Assembly (NCBI RefSeq): GCF_017573505.1
Contig: NZ_JAGEOJ010000019.1
Coordinates: forward strand, 124,001-188,000
Source of the DNA: Actinomadura barringtoniae
GTDB taxonomy: Bacteria > Actinomycetota > Actinomycetes > Streptosporangiales > Streptosporangiaceae
Length of the DNA: 64,000 bases
Direction: 5' to 3'
Shown here piece by piece: positions 53,036 through 61,111 of this stretch. Below the pieces are notes generated by a model, which searched no databases, was not told where the DNA came from, and was given only the letters and a program-made list of their open reading frames with translations. The translations under genes and the position numbers were made by a program. Each line of letters starts with the position of its first letter. Position 1 is the first letter of the stretch.

Positions 53036-53716
53036 GCCAACCGCGAAGCGTTCGCGCCCTTTCCGTGCGGTCGCACGACCAACGGACCTGTGACGGCCTT
53101 GTCCGCGTTCTCGCGGATGGTCTGGCCTAGTCCAAGAACTTGCAATCCGCGTAAGAGATCGTCCGCCCCCAGGCAATCTCGAAGGCGGCGACAACTGGCC
53201 GGACCGGGAGAGATCTGTGAAGCCCCTCCCGCCTTGACGGAAGAACTGTGAGTTATCCGTGCCGCTGGGGACGCGACATTGGGCGAGGCGACCCGACCTG
53301 CTGGGAGAGCCCGCGCTGACCTTGAGCCCGACCTGCACGCCGACCGCCGCTCCGCGGCCCCTGGCCGCCGCCCAGGCATACCGGCTGCGCATGACCGGGC
53401 CCGGCGGGCCGCAGACGACGTGCCCTCCCCGGCAGCGGCCGCCATTCTCCGCGGATTCGTGTCCACGGTCGCAGCCCCCGCCGTAATCGGCGATCTCCGT
53501 TGAAGGCCTCTCGCACCTCTCGCGCGTAAATTAAAGGGGCGCACGATAAACCTCGCCAAATGAGAAATTCATGAAGATCCACAGATAAGGGTGACCTTAC
53601 TTTGACCGGAGACGGACAGTTGATCTGCGAATAGTTTTCATGTGATGGGCGGTGTGAAACAGTGACCCTCGTTCGGCCTCCGGTCGAATGCCATTGGTAT
53701 GCGAGGGGAGTTTCGC
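53036..53716. other. Long intergenic region before the M28 peptidase gene
   Basis: No credible gene. The right part (about 53530-53700) is clearly more AT-rich than its surroundings and should hold the promoter and a leader of the peptidase gene. I see no known riboswitch motif. The left part shows only weak shadow frames. Confidence 0.45.
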
Positions 53717-55405
53717 ATGTCACATCATCGCTGGATGCTGCGCCCGTTCACGGTCTTGGCGGCGGGTGCCGCTCTCGTCACGATGGTCATCACCGCCCCC
53801 GCCGGGGCGGCCCCTGCGCCCGCGGGCGCGGGCCAGGGGCCGAGTTCTGCCGGGTGCGCAAATCGCGTCAACGACACGCCGCGCAAATTGATCGAGTGCA
53901 TCCAGACCGAGGACCTGTGGCGCCATATGCGGGCGTTCCAGGCGATCGCCGATGCGCACCCGGGCGCGGACGGTCACCCCTCTCGCAATTCCGGCGAGCC
54001 CGGCTATAAGGCGTCGGTCGACTACGTCGCCAAGCTGATGCGCCAGGCCGGATACGACGTCAAGATCCAGAATTACAAGTTCTTCTACTTCGCCTTCACG
54101 GCGCTACCGACCTTCCGCGAGGCCTCGCCGACGCCGCACGACTACACCGTGGCCACCGACTGGAACCCGGGCCAGAGCACCGGTGCCGCTTCGGCGGCCC
54201 TCCAGCCCGCGGGCGGCATCGTCATCCCGCCGACCTCGTCGCCCAGCTCGACCAGCGGCTGCGCGGCGGCCGACTTCACCGGCTTCACCGCGGGCCGGGT
54301 CGCGCTCGTCCAGCGCGGCGGCTGCAACTACGGCGTCAAGGTCCAGAACGCGCAGGCGGCCGGCGCCACCGGAGTGATCGTCTTCAACGAGGGCAACCCC
54401 GGACGCACCGATCTCATCAACGGCAGCCTCATCGACGCCGCGGGCAACCGGATCGTCCCGACCATCCCCGTCGCCTTCACCTCGTTCGCGACCGGCAGCG
54501 ACCTGCTCACCCAGTACGACCAGGCCGTCCAGAACGGCACGGCACCGCCGGTCATGAGCCTTGAGATCAAGGCGAAGGTCAACCCCAACGCCGACGACTA
54601 CAACGTCATCGCCGACTCCAAGGGCGGCGACCCGAACCACACCGTGGTCGTCGACGCCCACCTCGACGCGATCTACGGCGCCGGAATGCTCGACAACGCG
54701 TCCGGCTCCGCGACGATCCTGAACATCGCCCAGCTGATGCGCAAGGTCAAGCCCCGCAACAAGCTGCGGTTCATCTGGTTCGGTGGCGAGGAGCTGGGCG
54801 AGCTCGGCTCGGCGTTCTACGTCAACAACCTCGCCCCCGCCGACCTGGCCAAGATCGGCTATGACCTGGACGCGGACGTGACGGCGACCCCGAACTACGT
54901 GGTCGGCGTGCTCGACCCGGCGGGCGTCGACCTGTTCACCCGCACCGTCTCGACGCAGTTCCCGCCGCAGGTGTACGAGCCCTCGAAGGTCGCCAGGGAC
55001 CTGGGCATCCAGTACTTCAGCTCCATCGGGAAGAACCACATCCTGTTCTCTCCGGTGGGCACGGACGCCGAGCAGTTCAACCAGGCCGGCGTTCCCGCGA
55101 GCGGCGTGCTCACGGGGCAGGACTGCTGCAAGCTCCAATCGGACGTCGACCTGTTCGGCGGCGTCACCGGCAACTTCGAAGGAAAGATCCCGAGTACCGA
55201 CGGCGGATGCGTCGACAACCCGTTCCGCTGGTGCGACAACCTCGCGAACAACGACAAGAAGGTCCTCACCTTCATGTCCCGGGGATTCGCCAACATGGTG
55301 GTCAACATGGCCTTCGACACGAAGGTGCTGTCCGCGGCCGCCAACCCGCGAGTCCACGCCCAAGCCCGGCCGTCGCCCCACACCACAGGAGCCCCGTCCC
55401 GCTGA
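53717..55405 (+). CDS. Secreted M28-family aminopeptidase with PA domain
   Basis: 562 residues from ATG 53717, seven bases after GAGGGGAG. Signal peptide with cleavage near APAGAAPA (about 33). A protease-associated (PA) domain lies at about 150-265 (GRVALVQRGGCNYGVKVQNAQAAGATGVIVFNEG), inserted before the zinc domain. Zinc ligands are in VVDAHLDAIYGAGMLDNASGSA, FGGEELGELGS, and a late His in the IGKNHILFS region; six or more cysteines stabilise the C-terminus. It should remove N-terminal residues from peptides outside the cell. Monocistronic, with a strong hairpin after it. Confidence 0.9.
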   Translation: MSHHRWMLRPFTVLAAGAALVTMVITAPAGAAPAPAGAGQGPSSAGCANRVNDTPRKLIECIQTEDLWRHMRAFQAIADAHPGADGHPSRNSGEPGYKASVDYVAKLMRQAGYDVKIQNYKFFYFAFTALPTFREASPTPHDYTVATDWNPGQSTGAASAALQPAGGIVIPPTSSPSSTSGCAAADFTGFTAGRVALVQRGGCNYGVKVQNAQAAGATGVIVFNEGNPGRTDLINGSLIDAAGNRIVPTIPVAFTSFATGSDLLTQYDQAVQNGTAPPVMSLEIKAKVNPNADDYNVIADSKGGDPNHTVVVDAHLDAIYGAGMLDNASGSATILNIAQLMRKVKPRNKLRFIWFGGEELGELGSAFYVNNLAPADLAKIGYDLDADVTATPNYVVGVLDPAGVDLFTRTVSTQFPPQVYEPSKVARDLGIQYFSSIGKNHILFSPVGTDAEQFNQAGVPASGVLTGQDCCKLQSDVDLFGGVTGNFEGKIPSTDGGCVDNPFRWCDNLANNDKKVLTFMSRGFANMVVNMAFDTKVLSAAANPRVHAQARPSPHTTGAPSR

Positions 55406-55481: not shown

Positions 55482-55817
55482 GTGGGCGCGGATGGCATCG
55501 CCTGTGCTGCGGAGACAGGACAGAAGCGGGGGTCTTGGCTCTCGCCGGACGGGGCCGCACGAGCCCTTGCCGAAGACACCATGTCCCGCTGCGATCGCAC
55601 CCTCGGCCCAGACCACCCGTTCACCCTGCGCACCGCAGGCTCACTGGCCATGGGTTTCCACGCTCTCGACCGCAGTGAGCAGGCGTCACACCTGGTCTCC
55701 AGCCTGCGCCTCCAGGATGTGGACGACGCAATCCACCAGGCCGACTTCCATTGGGACTCTGGCCTGGCCTTGAACGCACTGTCGCCGCACTACGGCGACC
55801 GCATCACCCTGAACTGA
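55482..55817 (+). pseudogene. TPR-repeat fragment of an NB-ARC/FxSxx-COOH-type protein
   Basis: The segment ARALAEDTMSRCDRTLGPDHPFTLRTAGSLAMGFHALDRSEQASHL is one and a half units of the actinomycete tetratricopeptide repeat (A..LAEDTL.R.RR.LGPDHPDTL.SA.NLA). Full proteins have an NB-ARC ATPase and many such repeats over 800 or more residues. Here only the tail is present and nothing of the ATPase precedes it, so it is a remnant. Confidence 0.6.
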
Positions 55818-55905: not shown

Positions 55906-57504
55906 TCATTCGGGGGCGGTGGGTTGGGCCCGGCCGATGGCGGTATGTGCAGGGGGGCGATCGAAGCGCGCCAGCAGGAACGTTGTTTGGAGAGGGATCT
56001 CGTCGCCGGAGTGCTGGAGCAGATCGCTCTGAATGCCGTCCAGTAGCACCGCAGGCTCGTCCGTCTGCAAGGAAGAGATCCGTTCCGCGAGCGGATAACC
56101 GTGCTTTTGACCGGCCTCGCTCGCGCCGTGGGTGCACAGCAACAACCGATCGTCGGGACGGACGGGGACAGTGGTCGTCTCGCACCAGTGATTGGTGAGG
56201 TCGAGCAGGCTCAGCGGCGGGTAGGTCGGCAAGGACTCGATGGGAAGCGCCCGGTTCTCGCGCAGCAAAAGGGGTGGGGGATTCCCGCAGCACACCATCT
56301 CGGCGCGCCCGTCCTCCGGGTGCAGGGTGATGAGGACGGCGGTGACGAACTCTTCGGTCTTCATCTTCGGGCCGAGTGCCGCGTTCATCCGTTCGGCCAC
56401 TCCCGACAGGGGCCGTTCGTTGACCGCCAGCTGCCGGAACACGTCGACCACTCCGGCCGCCGTCTCTTCGGCCGACTCGGTCGCCCCGAGGACGTCGCCG
56501 ACCAGAATCCGGGTTCCGTAGGGCGTCGGCACGACGGCGTGGAAGTCCCCCTTGGTCCGGGTCGTGGACAGGAGTCGGCGCACTTGGGTCCGGGCCGTTC
56601 TGGTGTGCGGGCCGGTGCCCGCGACCGGCTTCGGACCGTAGTCCTCGCGAAGGATCTCCTGGAGGGCGTCAGGGGTGGACCCCGGGGGCGTGCCCTGCAC
56701 GCACAGTTGTTCCATCACCTCGAGGTAGTGGTCGACCTCATCGGACCTGTCCAGATACAGCGCACCGGTGAGGTTCTCCAGGTAGACCACGTCGGGCACG
56801 TCGTGCTCGGGGAAGCGCAGGATGCTGAACGCGCCGGCCTCCGCACGGTGGGCTCCGGAGCGGAACGACATCAACTGGATCGTGGTGCCGGGTCGGCCGC
56901 ACTGGGCGACGAGGTGCTCGATCTGGCCGCTCATCACCTCGGGACCGCCGATCGGGCGGCGCAGCGCGGCCTCATCGATGACGGCCCACAGCCGTGGGCG
57001 GCGGGGACCGGTGAGCCGTTCCTGGCGCTGTAGCCGCAGGTCGACCCGGTGGTCCAGCTCGGCGGGGGAAGCGCCGGGATTCCCGAGCGCGATGATCGCG
57101 CGGGCGTACTCGGGGGTCTGCAGGAGCCCGGGGATGAACTGGATCTCATACGTCCGGATGAGCGACGCCGATTCCTCGAGGCCCAGGTAGTTCTGGAACC
57201 AGCCGGGCAGCACATCGTTGTAGCCATGCCACCAGCCCGGCGTGTTGGCCTCGCGCGCCCACGTCAGCAGCAGCGCCCGCTGGCCCTCGTCGGTCACGGC
57301 GTAGAGGGTGAGCAGATCTGCCACGTCGCGTTCCTTGAAGCTGACGCGCCCCAACTCCAGTCGGCTGATCTTCGACTCCGACGACCGGATGCTGAAGCCG
57401 GCCTGCCGGCGCGTCAGCCCGGCCGCCTCGCGCAGGCGGCGCAGCTGTGCCCCGAGGAGGATGCGGCGCACCGTCGACCCTGAACCGGGTCGTTCAATGG
57501 TCAT
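55906..57504 (-). CDS. XRE regulator (DUF5753) fused to PPM/SpoIIE-type phosphatase domain
   Basis: 532 residues in one uninterrupted frame from ATG 57504. Residues 15-70: helix-turn-helix (LGAQLRRLREAAGLTRRQAGFSIRSSESKISRLELGR). About 95-280: DUF5753/Scr1 domain (YEIQFIPGLLQTPEYARAI, PGTTIQLMSF). About 310-515: PP2C/SpoIIE-like domain with LLSTTRTKGDFHAVVP, ILVGDVLGATESAEETA, NAALGPKMKTEEFVTAVLITL, CCGNPPPLLL. Ordinary DUF5753 proteins end near 280. The usual TDG metal residue reads THG (LLCTHGASEA), so activity is uncertain. Divergent remnants and an FAD gene flank it. Confidence 0.85.
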   Translation of the reverse strand: MTIERPGSGSTVRRILLGAQLRRLREAAGLTRRQAGFSIRSSESKISRLELGRVSFKERDVADLLTLYAVTDEGQRALLLTWAREANTPGWWHGYNDVLPGWFQNYLGLEESASLIRTYEIQFIPGLLQTPEYARAIIALGNPGASPAELDHRVDLRLQRQERLTGPRRPRLWAVIDEAALRRPIGGPEVMSGQIEHLVAQCGRPGTTIQLMSFRSGAHRAEAGAFSILRFPEHDVPDVVYLENLTGALYLDRSDEVDHYLEVMEQLCVQGTPPGSTPDALQEILREDYGPKPVAGTGPHTRTARTQVRRLLSTTRTKGDFHAVVPTPYGTRILVGDVLGATESAEETAAGVVDVFRQLAVNERPLSGVAERMNAALGPKMKTEEFVTAVLITLHPEDGRAEMVCCGNPPPLLLRENRALPIESLPTYPPLSLLDLTNHWCETTTVPVRPDDRLLLCTHGASEAGQKHGYPLAERISSLQTDEPAVLLDGIQSDLLQHSGDEIPLQTTFLLARFDRPPAHTAIGRAQPTAPE

Positions 57505-57558: not shown

Positions 57559-58914
57559 TCAAGGAGAGAGCTCGTCGGGGCCGATGGGCTGCCGTGCGCG
57601 CATGGTGGCGGCGCGCCAGAGCACGTCCGGCATGAACAGGGACTGGGGCTGCGCGTGGAGCGACAGCACGCTGATGAGCCGATCGCATACACGCTGGTCG
57701 ATGTTGGCGAGAGCCTGGACCCGGTCGACGTATCGGTTGAGGATCCGGGTCTGCAATCCGGCCGACGCGCCCTCTGTGGTGGCGTAGCGGAGGTCCTCGC
57801 CGGTGGCCACGAGCCAAGGGCCCGCAGCGTTCTTGACCACGCGCCGGTGGAAGCGCCGTGCCAGCCCGTCGAGGTCCCCGTCGCCGCGCAGGCAATCGTC
57901 CAGCGTCAGCGCGGACTTGGCCGCGACGCTCATCCCCTGGCCGTAGAGCGGGTTGAAGGCGCACAGCGAGTCGCCCATGGCCATGAGGCGCTTCGGCCAG
58001 CGCGACATCCGCTCGTAGTGATGCCGGACGTTGGAGGTGCGTCGATAGCTGAGGATGGGCGTGAGCGGCTCGGCCTCCCGGATCGCCTCGTAGAGCACTG
58101 GGCTGCGCAGGCTCTTGGCGAACTCCAGGAAACCTTCCTCATCGGTCGGTGGGAAGTCTCGCCCGACCCCGAACAGGCTGACGATCCAGCGTCCGCCCTC
58201 CTGGGGGAACAACGCTCCGGTGCGCGTGCCCGGTGCCCTGGCCTGGAGATACAGCGCCTTCCATCCGGGGTCGAACCCCGCAGGGATCGCATAGGTGCGG
58301 CTCGCGTACCCCAGCAGGGGATCGATCAAGGTCCGGCGTGCGGCGGGGTAACCGAGCTTCTCCAGCCACTCGGGAGTCTTCGAACTGCGCCCGGTGGCGT
58401 CGATGATCAGATCGGCCGTCAGCGTCTCACCCGGCTCGGTGGTTCCGCGCTCGCGGATCGTGAGCCCGGTGACGGTGCCGTTCTCGGCGACGAGGTCGAC
58501 CGCCTCATGACCATCGAGCACCTGGAGATCCCCGAGCTTGGCCAGCCTGGAGCGCACGGTCCAGTCGAGCAGGTCGCGGCTGAAGGTCATCAAGCGGGTG
58601 GAGTCGAACCGGCGGCGCCACCCCGCCGGGGTCATCCACAGCAGATCGGCGGGGATCCGGACCTCCGGTACGCCCGCGACGCGCAGTTCCTCCTCAAGCC
58701 CCGGGAACAGCTGCTCGGCGATCTCCAGGCCCCGGCTCCAGAACACGTGCAGGTGCCGCGCCTGGCCGAGGCCCGGACGGGAGGCGACCGTGTCGGGGAA
58801 CCTGTCCCGCTCGACCAGGGTGACCCGGTCGAAATGGTCGCTCAGGACCCTGGCCGCCAGCAGTCCGGCCATGCTGCCGCCGATGACGATGGCGTGCTCG
58901 CGGGACTCGCTCAC
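57559..58914 (-). CDS. FAD-dependent monooxygenase/oxidoreductase
   Basis: 451 residues from GTG 58914. FAD-binding GGSMAGLLAARVLSDHFDRVTLVERD at about 12-37, the DG-like middle motif LIIDATGRSSKTPEWLEKLGY, and the C-terminal flavin motif MAMGDSLCAFNPLYGQGMSVAA. It resembles the UbiH/PHBH-related actinobacterial group that includes epoxidases and geranylgeranyl-reductase-like enzymes. Substrate unknown; it lies on the same strand as the NB-ARC protein (49 bases upstream) and the XRE fusion (54 bases downstream), so the three may be transcribed together. Confidence 0.82.
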   Translation of the reverse strand: MSESREHAIVIGGSMAGLLAARVLSDHFDRVTLVERDRFPDTVASRPGLGQARHLHVFWSRGLEIAEQLFPGLEEELRVAGVPEVRIPADLLWMTPAGWRRRFDSTRLMTFSRDLLDWTVRSRLAKLGDLQVLDGHEAVDLVAENGTVTGLTIRERGTTEPGETLTADLIIDATGRSSKTPEWLEKLGYPAARRTLIDPLLGYASRTYAIPAGFDPGWKALYLQARAPGTRTGALFPQEGGRWIVSLFGVGRDFPPTDEEGFLEFAKSLRSPVLYEAIREAEPLTPILSYRRTSNVRHHYERMSRWPKRLMAMGDSLCAFNPLYGQGMSVAAKSALTLDDCLRGDGDLDGLARRFHRRVVKNAAGPWLVATGEDLRYATTEGASAGLQTRILNRYVDRVQALANIDQRVCDRLISVLSLHAQPQSLFMPDVLWRAATMRARQPIGPDELSP

Positions 58915-58963: not shown

Positions 58964-61111
58964 TCAACGATGGTGACGGGATCCGTCCGGGAACGGCAGG
59001 CGTCCGCCGCTCTCGCCCATCGCGAAGGCGACCGCCTGATCGAGATCAAGATGCGTGCCGTCCTCGAAGTACCGCTCGTAAGCCGCCTCGCCCAGCGACT
59101 GGCGGGCGAGCGCCTCTCCCTGCTCGTGCGGGGCGTTGAAGAACGCGGAACCGAAGAGCGGGAGCCCGACGGTCCGCCAGACCCCCTTGGCCGCCCCCTG
59201 CAGCGTCGACGCGTCCTCGGGGCGGCCGCCCGAAGCCTGGAAGAGGGCGAGCAACTCGACGGCGAGGACCGCGCACACGAGATCGTGGAAGGTACGGCTG
59301 AGCGTGAGGCTCTCCCGCGCGAGCGTGATCGCCTCCTCGGCCTGGCCCCTGGTCCAGGCCGCGAAGGCCAGAACGTAGAGCGCGTAGGCCTTGACCCACC
59401 CCTCACCGTGCTCCTCGCAGATGGCGCGCACGCCCTCGCACAACTCGACGGCGTAGGGCAGGTCACCCTGGAACGCGTTCGTCATGGCGAACTCGACCCG
59501 GGCCATGATGACGGTGGTGTTCAGCTCACCGAGGGCGTCGTAACGGGCGAGCGCGTCCTTGAACAGCACGGCCGCTCGTGCGTGGTCGTCGGTCACCAGG
59601 GAGACACAGCCCAGCCGGTGAATCGCGTTCGCCAGCGCCACCCGGTCGCCGGTCCGCTGCGCCTGGGCCTGGCTCGCCTCCAGCAGTGCGGCGGCCCTGC
59701 CGGTGTCGCCCTGCTTGATGGCGATGTATCCGTTGACCCAGAGGGCCGCGGCCCGTTCCCGAGTCGGCGCGGAGTCGAGGGCCAGCGCTCGGTCCAGCCA
59801 GCAGCGCCCCTCGTTGAGGAAGCCGCAGCCCAGCCAGTAGAAGTACATCGTGGCGGCCATGTGCAGGCCGGCCCGCACTTCACCGGGTGCGGTGAGGCTG
59901 TATTCGAGCGCGGCGCTCAGGTCGGCGTGCACGCCGCGCATGCGCTGGAAGATCTCCGCCTGCCCGGCGCCGAACCACGCCCGCTCGTGCTCTTCGACCA
60001 GCCGCACGAACCAGTCCCGGTGCCGGCGCCGCAGGTCGTCTTGCTCGCCCAACTCGCGGAGCCATTCCGCGCCGTACTGGCGCAGGGTGTCCAGCAACCG
60101 GTAACGGACGCCCGATCCGTTGTCGACGCGTGTCAGGATCGACTTGTCGGTCAGGCTCACCAGTGTCGCGGGCACGCGGTCCGAGGGCAGCACGTCGTCA
60201 CAGCAGATGTGTTCGGCCGTCTTCTGGTCGAAGTCTCCGGCGAACACCGACAGCCGGGCCCACAGGAGCCGTTCCTCCTGCGTGCAGAGCTCGTGGCTCC
60301 AGCCGACCGTCGTACGGAGCGCGTCGTGGCGGGAAGCATCCGCGGGGCTGGTCGCCAGGTCTTCGTCGACCAGTACCTGGAACCGGTCGTCCAGCCGATC
60401 AAACAGATCGTCCAGGGAAAGATGCCGCAACTGTCCGGCGGCGAGCTCCAGCGCCAGCGGGAGTCCCTCCAGGCGCCGGCACAGGCGTGCCACGGTGCGC
60501 CAGTTCCGCGGGGTGAGATCCAGTCCGCCCATGACGGTCGCGGCGCGCTGCTCGAACAGAGCGAAGGCCGGAGGCCGCACGGAGGTGTCGACGGGCATCA
60601 CCTCGGGGTCGGTCATGGCCAGCGGTGCGAGCGGGAGCACGTGCTCGGCACCGAGGCCGAGGGCCTGCCGGCTGGTGGCGAGGACGCACAGCCCCGGGGC
60701 GGCGGCGAGCAGTACCTCGGCCACGCCCGCGGAGGCCTCCCTGAGATGCTCGCACGTGTCCAGGACCAGCAGGAGCCGCCTGCCGGCCAAATGATCGGCC
60801 AGGACGTCGAGCTGCGGTCGTGCGGTCTGGTCGACGACCCGCAGCGTGCGGGCGATCGCATGGCCCACCAGCTCAGCGTCCCGCAGGGCGGACAGATCCA
60901 CCACCCAGACGCCGTCGGGGAAGTCCTCCCGGGACTCCCGTGCAGCCTCCAGCGCCACCCTGGTCTTGCCGACACCGCCGACACCGGTCACCGTCACCAT
61001 GGAGCCCGGTCGACACAGCCGCCTGAGCTCGGTCATCTCGGCCTGCCGACCGACAAGAGCGGTCAACCCGAGAGGCAGATTGCCCCTCCTACGCGCAGCG
61101 AACTCGGCCAC
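58964..61111 (-). CDS. NB-ARC/AAA ATPase with TPR repeats (LuxR-large-regulator relative without DNA-binding domain)
   Basis: 715 residues from ATG 61111. Walker A GVGGVGKT at 43-50, Walker B RLLLVLDTCEHL, sensor LATSRQALGLGAEHVLPLAPL, GLPLALELAA, then a winged helix and tetratricopeptide-like helices from about 420 to 680. Close relatives of this layout end with a LuxR helix-turn-helix; here the chain stops at about 715 (FAMGESGGRLPFPDGSRHHR) with no such motif. It may act as a signalling ATPase through protein contacts. Likely partner genes: the FAD enzyme and XRE fusion downstream. Confidence 0.83.
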   Translation of the reverse strand: MAEFAARRRGNLPLGLTALVGRQAEMTELRRLCRPGSMVTVTGVGGVGKTRVALEAARESREDFPDGVWVVDLSALRDAELVGHAIARTLRVVDQTARPQLDVLADHLAGRRLLLVLDTCEHLREASAGVAEVLLAAAPGLCVLATSRQALGLGAEHVLPLAPLAMTDPEVMPVDTSVRPPAFALFEQRAATVMGGLDLTPRNWRTVARLCRRLEGLPLALELAAGQLRHLSLDDLFDRLDDRFQVLVDEDLATSPADASRHDALRTTVGWSHELCTQEERLLWARLSVFAGDFDQKTAEHICCDDVLPSDRVPATLVSLTDKSILTRVDNGSGVRYRLLDTLRQYGAEWLRELGEQDDLRRRHRDWFVRLVEEHERAWFGAGQAEIFQRMRGVHADLSAALEYSLTAPGEVRAGLHMAATMYFYWLGCGFLNEGRCWLDRALALDSAPTRERAAALWVNGYIAIKQGDTGRAAALLEASQAQAQRTGDRVALANAIHRLGCVSLVTDDHARAAVLFKDALARYDALGELNTTVIMARVEFAMTNAFQGDLPYAVELCEGVRAICEEHGEGWVKAYALYVLAFAAWTRGQAEEAITLARESLTLSRTFHDLVCAVLAVELLALFQASGGRPEDASTLQGAAKGVWRTVGLPLFGSAFFNAPHEQGEALARQSLGEAAYERYFEDGTHLDLDQAVAFAMGESGGRLPFPDGSRHHR

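What the first reader, a model, noticed from the sequence alone, without database searches (positions are those of the whole stretch)
55906..57504. XRE-DUF5753 regulator fused to a PPM/SpoIIE-like phosphatase
DUF5753 proteins normally end after the ligand-like domain. This one continues in frame into a phosphatase fold typical of SpoIIE/RsbU. Direct fusion would let a DNA-binding protein control an anti-sigma cascade or be controlled by phosphorylation. One metal-binding Asp (TDG to THG) is changed, so it may have become a sensor domain.
Basis: partly seen in the sequence, partly recalled or inferred. Interest (0 to 1): 0.62.

Follow-up and report, generated by a model that had tools for sequence, protein, structure and literature searches.

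The report
DNA-binding regulator carrying a dead phosphatase
A gene-control protein of soil actinomycetes has acquired a protein-phosphatase domain that has lost key metal-binding residues, probably turning it into a built-in switch or docking module in place of the separate partner proteins its relatives use.

Summary
The ORF is real: 532 aa, an XRE helix-turn-helix, a DUF5753 domain and, in one open frame, a SpoIIE-type PPM fold. It is not a missed stop: at least 9 of 65 genomes of the genus, own included, encode the full-length fusion. The front half belongs to the Sco1979 family. The equivalent of SpoIIE D746 is gone in 9 of 9 fusions and that of D795 in 8 of 9, while both are present in 34 of 34 relatives. 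It is best read as a pseudophosphatase related to actinobacterial membrane SpoIIE phosphatases. It lies in a cassette with an NB-ARC/TPR ATPase and an FAD monooxygenase-like gene in 8 of 9 fusion genomes. The usual partners are missing: a DUF397 gene was found near 65 of 78 ordinary relatives and 0 of 11 fusion loci; a HATPase match lies within 2 kb of 24 of 47 DUF5753 matches of this genome, but none was found on the fusion's contig. Most likely the pseudo-PPM replaces those partners as an in-cis, non-catalytic module, as the pseudo-PP2C of RssB works. Function is inferred. New variant of a known kind.

The parts
55906..57504 (-). XRE-DUF5753-pseudoPPM fusion gene, 532 aa
   Evidence: 9 of 65 genus genomes give a near full-length match
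57274..57456 (-). HTH_31 (XRE) DNA-binding domain, residues 17-77; within it SESKISRLELGRVSFKERDV is identical to the ordinary paralogue of the same genome
56659..57198 (-). DUF5753, residues 103-282
55957..56559 (-). SpoIIE-type PPM fold with an incomplete metal site, residues 316-516 (Pfam match 330-513)
56494..56496 (-). Asp337, equivalent of SpoIIE D628, kept (D in 7 of 9 fusions)
   Evidence: SpoIIE ligand numbers from passages of PMC5468089
56128..56130 (-). His459 in place of the TDG Asp (equivalent of SpoIIE D746); D in 0 of 9 fusions and 34 of 34 relatives
55987..55992 (-). Leu505-Gln506 in place of an Asp-Asp pair; 505 is the equivalent of SpoIIE D795 (D in 1 of 9 fusions), 506 is D in 0 of 9; both D in 34 of 34 relatives
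   Evidence: register from the alignment
57559..58914 (-). FAD monooxygenase-like protein (FAD_binding_3), 451 aa, cassette gene
58964..61111 (-). NB-ARC/TPR ATPase, 715 aa, no DNA-binding domain found by Pfam, first gene of the cassette

Best explanation
A Sco1979-family XRE-DUF5753 regulator (WhiJ/Scr1 kind) has fused to a PPM domain related to actinobacterial membrane-type SpoIIE phosphatases (shown). The PPM domain has lost one Asp metal ligand in all nine copies and a second in eight, and is most likely non-catalytic (ligand loss shown, inactivity inferred). It probably works as an in-cis protein-interaction or conformational switch that controls the DNA-binding half, in place of the separate DUF397 and HATPase partners that many ordinary relatives have beside them (absence of partners shown for the stretches searched, replacement inferred). 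The signal probably comes through the co-encoded NB-ARC/TPR ATPase, and the co-encoded FAD monooxygenase is an output or signal-maker (inferred from conserved neighbourhood alone).
For: Domains. Whole fusion conserved in 9 of 65 genus genomes. By the front half 8 of 9 fusions form one supported clade, and one clade of all 9 is not rejected (AU p 0.7). Ligands: position 459 Asp in 0 of 9 fusions, 505 in 1 of 9, 506 in 0 of 9, all three Asp in 34 of 34 relatives. Relatives of the PPM half: 30 of 34 have 1-4 hydrophobic segments; the four without are weaker own-genome matches. Purifying selection on the PPM half: dN/dS 0.38-0.52 in the six pairs among L121-L124, against 0.10-0.31 for the front half and 0.36-0.97 for the linker. 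Cassette: ATPase at 61% identity or more in 8 of 9 fusion genomes and 0 of 56 others; ATPase and FAD relatives beside 0 of 78 ordinary loci; in G009 a contig end falls between the FAD gene and the fusion. DUF397: 65 of 78 against 0 of 11. HATPase: within 2 kb of 24 of 47 DUF5753 matches, about 4% expected by chance, none on the fusion's contig.
Against: No experiment. Selection on the PPM half is weaker than on the front half: dN/dS 0.81 in the close pair L119-L120 and about 0.5-1.1 in pairs with the two divergent fusions L125 and L126 (a crude counting method on GC-rich codons), so decay is not excluded. Asp320 and Asp337 are kept in 8 and 7 of 9 copies, and the G001 copy keeps Asp at 505, so some metal binding may remain. 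The G001 fusion has no cassette. Gene order differs in G055. In the first tree well-supported branches put the G055 fusion apart from the rest; this went away when three long paralogues and a duplicate were left out. 23 of 47 DUF5753 matches of the genome also lack a near HATPase and 13 of 78 ordinary loci lack a DUF397 in the held flank, so absence of partners is not unique to the fusion. The structural model is of modest confidence.
Confidence: 0.58

Rival explanations
1. The PPM half is an active phosphatase with an unusual metal site, acting on a STAS or HATPase partner elsewhere in the cell, so that DNA binding and a partner switch are coupled.
For: PPM fold; Asp320 in 8 of 9 and Asp337 in 7 of 9 copies, Asp505 in the G001 copy; the own genome has 106 HATPase_c_2 matches.
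Against: The equivalent of SpoIIE D746 is gone in 9 of 9 copies (H, Y, F, Q or N) and that of D795 in 8 of 9 (L or R). No partner gene found nearby.
Confidence: 0.1
2. The PPM half is a passenger from an accidental fusion, slowly decaying, and the protein works as an ordinary Sco1979-type regulator.
For: Weaker purifying selection on the PPM half: 0.81 in L119-L120, about 0.5-1.1 in pairs with the two divergent fusions; position 459 varies freely (H, Y, F, Q, N).
Against: Kept in 9 genomes; core stretches such as CCGNPPPLL and TPFGTRILIGDVLG are kept in most copies; dN/dS 0.38-0.52 in the six pairs among L121-L124; no DUF397 gene found at any fusion locus, which suggests replacement rather than a neutral addition.
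Confidence: 0.22
3. It acts as a competitor of the ordinary Sco1979 paralogue: same recognition helix, so it occupies the paralogue's operators under a different control signal. This can hold together with the best explanation.
For: A 20-residue helix-turn-helix stretch identical to the own paralogue; the paralogue's promoter carries TGCACGTGCA, found upstream in 77 of 99 ordinary loci, while 0 of 8 fusion loci have it upstream.
Against: That the palindrome is the operator is itself inferred, and the 99 loci are related to each other; in the own genome the ten-mer is not enriched (23 sites, 32 for the reversed control). The first helices of the DNA-binding domain differ.
Confidence: 0.3

Closest known systems
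Sco1979 / WhiJ / Scr1 family XRE-DUF5753 regulators
   Same: HTH and DUF5753 halves; matches NF058600 above cut-off; 65-70% identity to the ordinary copy in each of the nine fusion genomes
   Different: About 245 extra residues with a PPM fold; no DUF397 gene or HATPase match found beside it; no TGCACGTGCA upstream
Actinobacterial membrane-type SpoIIE PPM phosphatases
   Same: Nearest relatives of the C-terminal half, PPM fold
   Different: No hydrophobic segment in the fusion; TDG Asp and Asp-Asp pair lost
RssB (receiver plus pseudo-PP2C adaptor)
   Same: A regulator half joined to a PP2C fold, whose role is described as adaptor and not phosphatase (passages of PMC5468089); P. aeruginosa RssB is among the top structural matches
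   Different: The other half is a receiver (recalled), not a DNA-binding domain; it delivers a sigma factor to proteolysis
XRE / DUF397 / HATPase (whiJ-bldB-abaA) clusters
   Same: Same class of DNA-binding protein
   Different: There the modulators are separate genes (passages of PMC10294661); here a PPM-like domain is fused and neither gene was found nearby

Membership tests
Sco1979 family (NF058600) | Whole-protein score above the NCBIfam cut-off of 350 | tested here: met
   385.1 bits over residues 9-287
XRE-DUF397 pairs | DUF397 gene beside the regulator | tested here: not met
   0 of 11 fusion loci (9 genomes), 65 of 78 ordinary loci
Sco1979 family | Protein ends after DUF5753 (about 288 aa in ordinary copies) | tested here: not met
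   532 aa; 245 residues follow the front half
SpoIIE/RsbU PPM phosphatases | PPM fold | tested here: met
   PF07228 1.6e-25; VIA Z 15.5, rmsd 4.2 over 193 residues
SpoIIE/RsbU PPM phosphatases | Asp metal ligands equivalent to D628, D746, D795 | tested here: not met
   window protein has the D628 equivalent only; over 9 fusions Asp in 7, 0 and 1
SpoIIE/RsbU PPM phosphatases | Metal-dependent phosphatase activity | not testable with these tools
   needs an assay
Pseudo-PP2C adaptors (RssB-like) | PP2C fold used for protein binding without need of phosphatase activity | not testable with these tools
   works-like argument only; needs binding assays

The most novel reading that the evidence does not exclude
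A transcription factor in which a pseudo-PPM domain has taken over, in cis, the job of the DUF397 and HATPase partners of WhiJ-type regulators, so that a STAND-type NB-ARC/TPR ATPase talks through a dead phosphatase to the operator of the ordinary Sco1979 paralogue. It would suggest that the whiJ-bldB-abaA clusters are partner-switch-like devices.
Probability: 0.2. Interest if true: 0.7.

Novelty: new variant of a known kind. Interest (0 to 1): 0.5.

Why it matters
How DUF397 and HATPase partners control WhiJ-type regulators is an open question in actinomycete development and antibiotic control. A natural fusion found without both partners and with a SpoIIE-like fold added is a ready-made construct for testing whether these clusters use partner-switch logic, and it would add a DNA-binding case to bacterial pseudo-PP2C signalling proteins.

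Tried and rejected
Missed stop or frameshift: rejected, full-length homologues at 50-66% identity in eight other genomes. Common architecture: in 297 genomes of the order the listed full-length matches are all in the genus (list truncated). In 396 genomes of the phylum one match besides the own one reached across the junction (G429, model positions 48-219); fetched and looked at, it is a 397-aa membrane-type PPM with three hydrophobic segments and no match to the front half, so it is not a fusion. Only a few candidates per genome were scored (4, 7), so distant independent fusions are not excluded, and 9 of 65 is a lower bound (22 candidates scored per genome, list truncated). Of the loci held, only those of the nine known fusions had both halves in one frame.

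DNA site upstream of the cassette: alignment of six upstream regions gave no clear conserved site; TGCACGTGCA is absent there (8 loci, best 2-4 mismatches, chance level), and its 12-base form in the window is at chance. Position 323 (GGDxxD) was considered as a further lost ligand and dropped, since 11 of 34 relatives also have Ala there. The gene caller was crude and missed the FAD and ATPase genes at L122; one search found them. Of 35 fetched relatives one (L184) gave no matching frame and was left out of the 34; one of the 34 (L183) aligned badly at two motifs. In one search one fusion locus (L120, contig start) was dropped for lack of upstream sequence; the shuffle was of single bases. In one search four rows of the first tree (three long paralogues and a duplicate) were left out. 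A first HATPase count used 58 of 106 matches; one search repeats it with all 106.

Print: searches for SpoIIE+XRE+Actinomadura (0 papers), DUF5753 (3 papers), SpoIIE+pseudophosphatase (1 paper, on PHLPP) and a five-term fusion query (5 papers) showed no report of this architecture in their listings; most subscription papers are not held, among them Zhu et al. 2020 on SCO1979. RssB+pseudophosphatase gave 0 papers.

Full report
What is there. The ORF at 55906-57504 on the minus strand encodes 532 residues with HTH_31 (17-77), DUF5753 (103-282) and SpoIIE (330-513) matches, all above the Pfam cut-offs. The front half scores 385 bits against NF058600, the Sco1979 family, with a cut-off of 350. By sequence alone the back half matches solved structures only weakly (E 0.18 to SpoIIE). 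A model built from 29 sequences (mean pLDDT 63.1, pTM 0.39) finds PPM structures: SpoIIE 5mqh by Foldseek at 1.7e-6 with rmsd 8.5 and, by VIA-align, 3ke6 (RsbU/RsbW domains of Rv1364c) at Z 15.5, rmsd 4.2 over 193 residues, and RssB 3eq2 at Z 13.8.

It is a conserved fusion. A scan of named genomes (80 best of 571 candidates kept) found full-length relatives in Actinomadura livida and A. darangshiensis. Of 65 genomes of the genus, 9 (own included) hold a match over nearly the whole length, 51-67% identical in the other eight; each of the nine also has an ordinary copy without the back half, 65-70% identical to the front half. In 297 genomes of the order the listed full-length matches are all in the genus (list truncated). 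In 396 genomes of the phylum the only other match across the junction proved to be a membrane-type phosphatase without the front half. By the front half, eight of nine fusions form one supported clade; the ninth (G055) falls beside an ordinary copy (support 83), and in that first tree well-supported branches keep it apart. Without three long paralogues and a duplicate this is no longer forced, and one clade for all nine is not rejected (AU p 0.7).

The phosphatase half has lost part of its metal site. SpoIIE's putative Asp ligands are D628, D746 and D795 (passages of PMC5468089). The window residues at these places are D337, H459 and L505; the last was placed through the ungapped end of the alignment. 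Against 34 relatives with Asp at 459, 505 and 506 in 34 of 34, the fusions have Asp at 459 in 0 of 9, at 505 in 1 of 9 (G001), at 506 in 0 of 9; the D628 equivalent is Asp in 7 of 9. The closest listed relatives outside the genus, and the nearest in the own genome (391 aa on contig C39, L180), look like membrane-type SpoIIE phosphatases: 30 of the 34 have one to four hydrophobic segments, the fusion has none. Counted dN/dS in the six pairs among L121-L124 is 0.10-0.31 for the front half, 0.38-0.52 for the PPM half and 0.36-0.97 for the linker. The PPM half reaches 0.81 in L119-L120 and about 0.5-1.1 in pairs with the divergent fusions L125 and L126, which tells for the decay rival.

Its company. 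The fusion is the third gene of a same-strand set: an NB-ARC/TPR ATPase without a DNA-binding domain found by Pfam (58964-61111), an FAD monooxygenase-like protein (57559-58914) and the fusion, 54 bases behind it. An ATPase at 61% identity or more occurs in 8 of 65 genus genomes, all of them fusion genomes; the next best is 47%. The three genes are adjacent in the window and in L119, L121, L122, L123 and L124, in another order in L125, and split by a contig end in G009. In G001 (L126) the fusion stands without them. Neither the ATPase nor the FAD gene turned up near any of 78 ordinary loci (flanks up to 6 kb, some cut short by contig ends). Apart from the cassette, few gene families are shared between the flanks, so the set behaves as a unit.

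What is missing. WhiJ paralogues are commonly neighbours of a DUF397 gene (BldB kind), of an AbaA gene with a HATPase_c domain, or both. [quoted passage not shown] of PMC6262351; of PMC10364602). A profile grown from own and related DUF397 sequences finds one in 65 of 78 ordinary loci, in the Thermomonosporaceae loci looked at typically directly behind the regulator, and in 0 of 11 fusion loci from 9 genomes, the whole 64-kb window included (L120 starts at the fusion, so only one side was seen there). In the own genome a HATPase_c_2 match lies within 2 kb of 24 of 47 DUF5753 matches (about 4% expected), the nearest ordinary paralogue included; none of the 106 matches lies on the fusion's contig. 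The other 23 DUF5753 matches also lack one, so this absence alone is not special. Where many relatives have separate partners, this protein has a PPM-like domain in cis.

DNA binding. Twenty residues of the helix-turn-helix (SESKISRLELGRVSFKERDV) are identical between the fusion and the own ordinary paralogue, while the first helices differ. Ordinary loci carry an exact TGCACGTGCA within 350 bases upstream in 77 of 99 cases, against 0 of 1980 single-base shuffles; the loci are related, so they are not 99 independent cases. 0 of 8 fusion loci have it, nor do the 8 regions upstream of the cassette or fusion. It is the likely autoregulatory site of the ordinary family (inferred; SCO1979 is named as binding upstream of its own gene in a passage of PMC12565409). 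The fusion may therefore act at the paralogue's promoter in trans. Genome-wide the ten-mer is not enriched (23 against 32 for the reversed control), so no regulon is claimed.

Mechanism, with status. Shown: fusion, ligand loss, cassette, and no partner gene in the stretches searched. Inferred: no catalysis; the PPM half as a docking or switch module, as PMC5468089 describes for RssB, whose pseudo-PP2C serves as an adaptor under control of the switch helices (passages); the ATPase as input.

Verdict. A real, conserved variant of a known regulator family, so far seen in one genus only; function untested.

Noticed in passing
L011-L088 and L098-L118, upstream of the ordinary Sco1979-family genes: Exact palindrome TGCACGTGCA within 350 bases upstream in 77 of 99 loci, none in 1980 single-base shuffles; likely autoregulatory operator of the family. 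Whether it is published could not be checked.
   Followed up: partly
G000, 47 DUF5753 matches: 24 of 47 have a HATPase_c_2 match within 2 kb, so the WhiJ-AbaA neighbourhood known from Streptomyces is common in this genome too.
   Followed up: partly
L125:10335-10911: A broken-looking SpoIIE phosphatase gene (two overlapping frames, Pfam match in the first) with TDG and DD present lies divergently upstream of the fusion in G055.
   Followed up: no
window 55482-55817 (+): Short ORF with a partial TPR_12 match (just under the cut-off) between the 568-aa ORF at 53699-55405 and the fusion, possibly a gene remnant.
   Followed up: no
L120, L121, L122, L124 downstream of the fusion: S-adenosyl methyltransferase genes (PF04672 by Pfam in L121 and L122, by BLAST similarity in L120 and L124) lie near the fusion in four genomes.
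   Followed up: no
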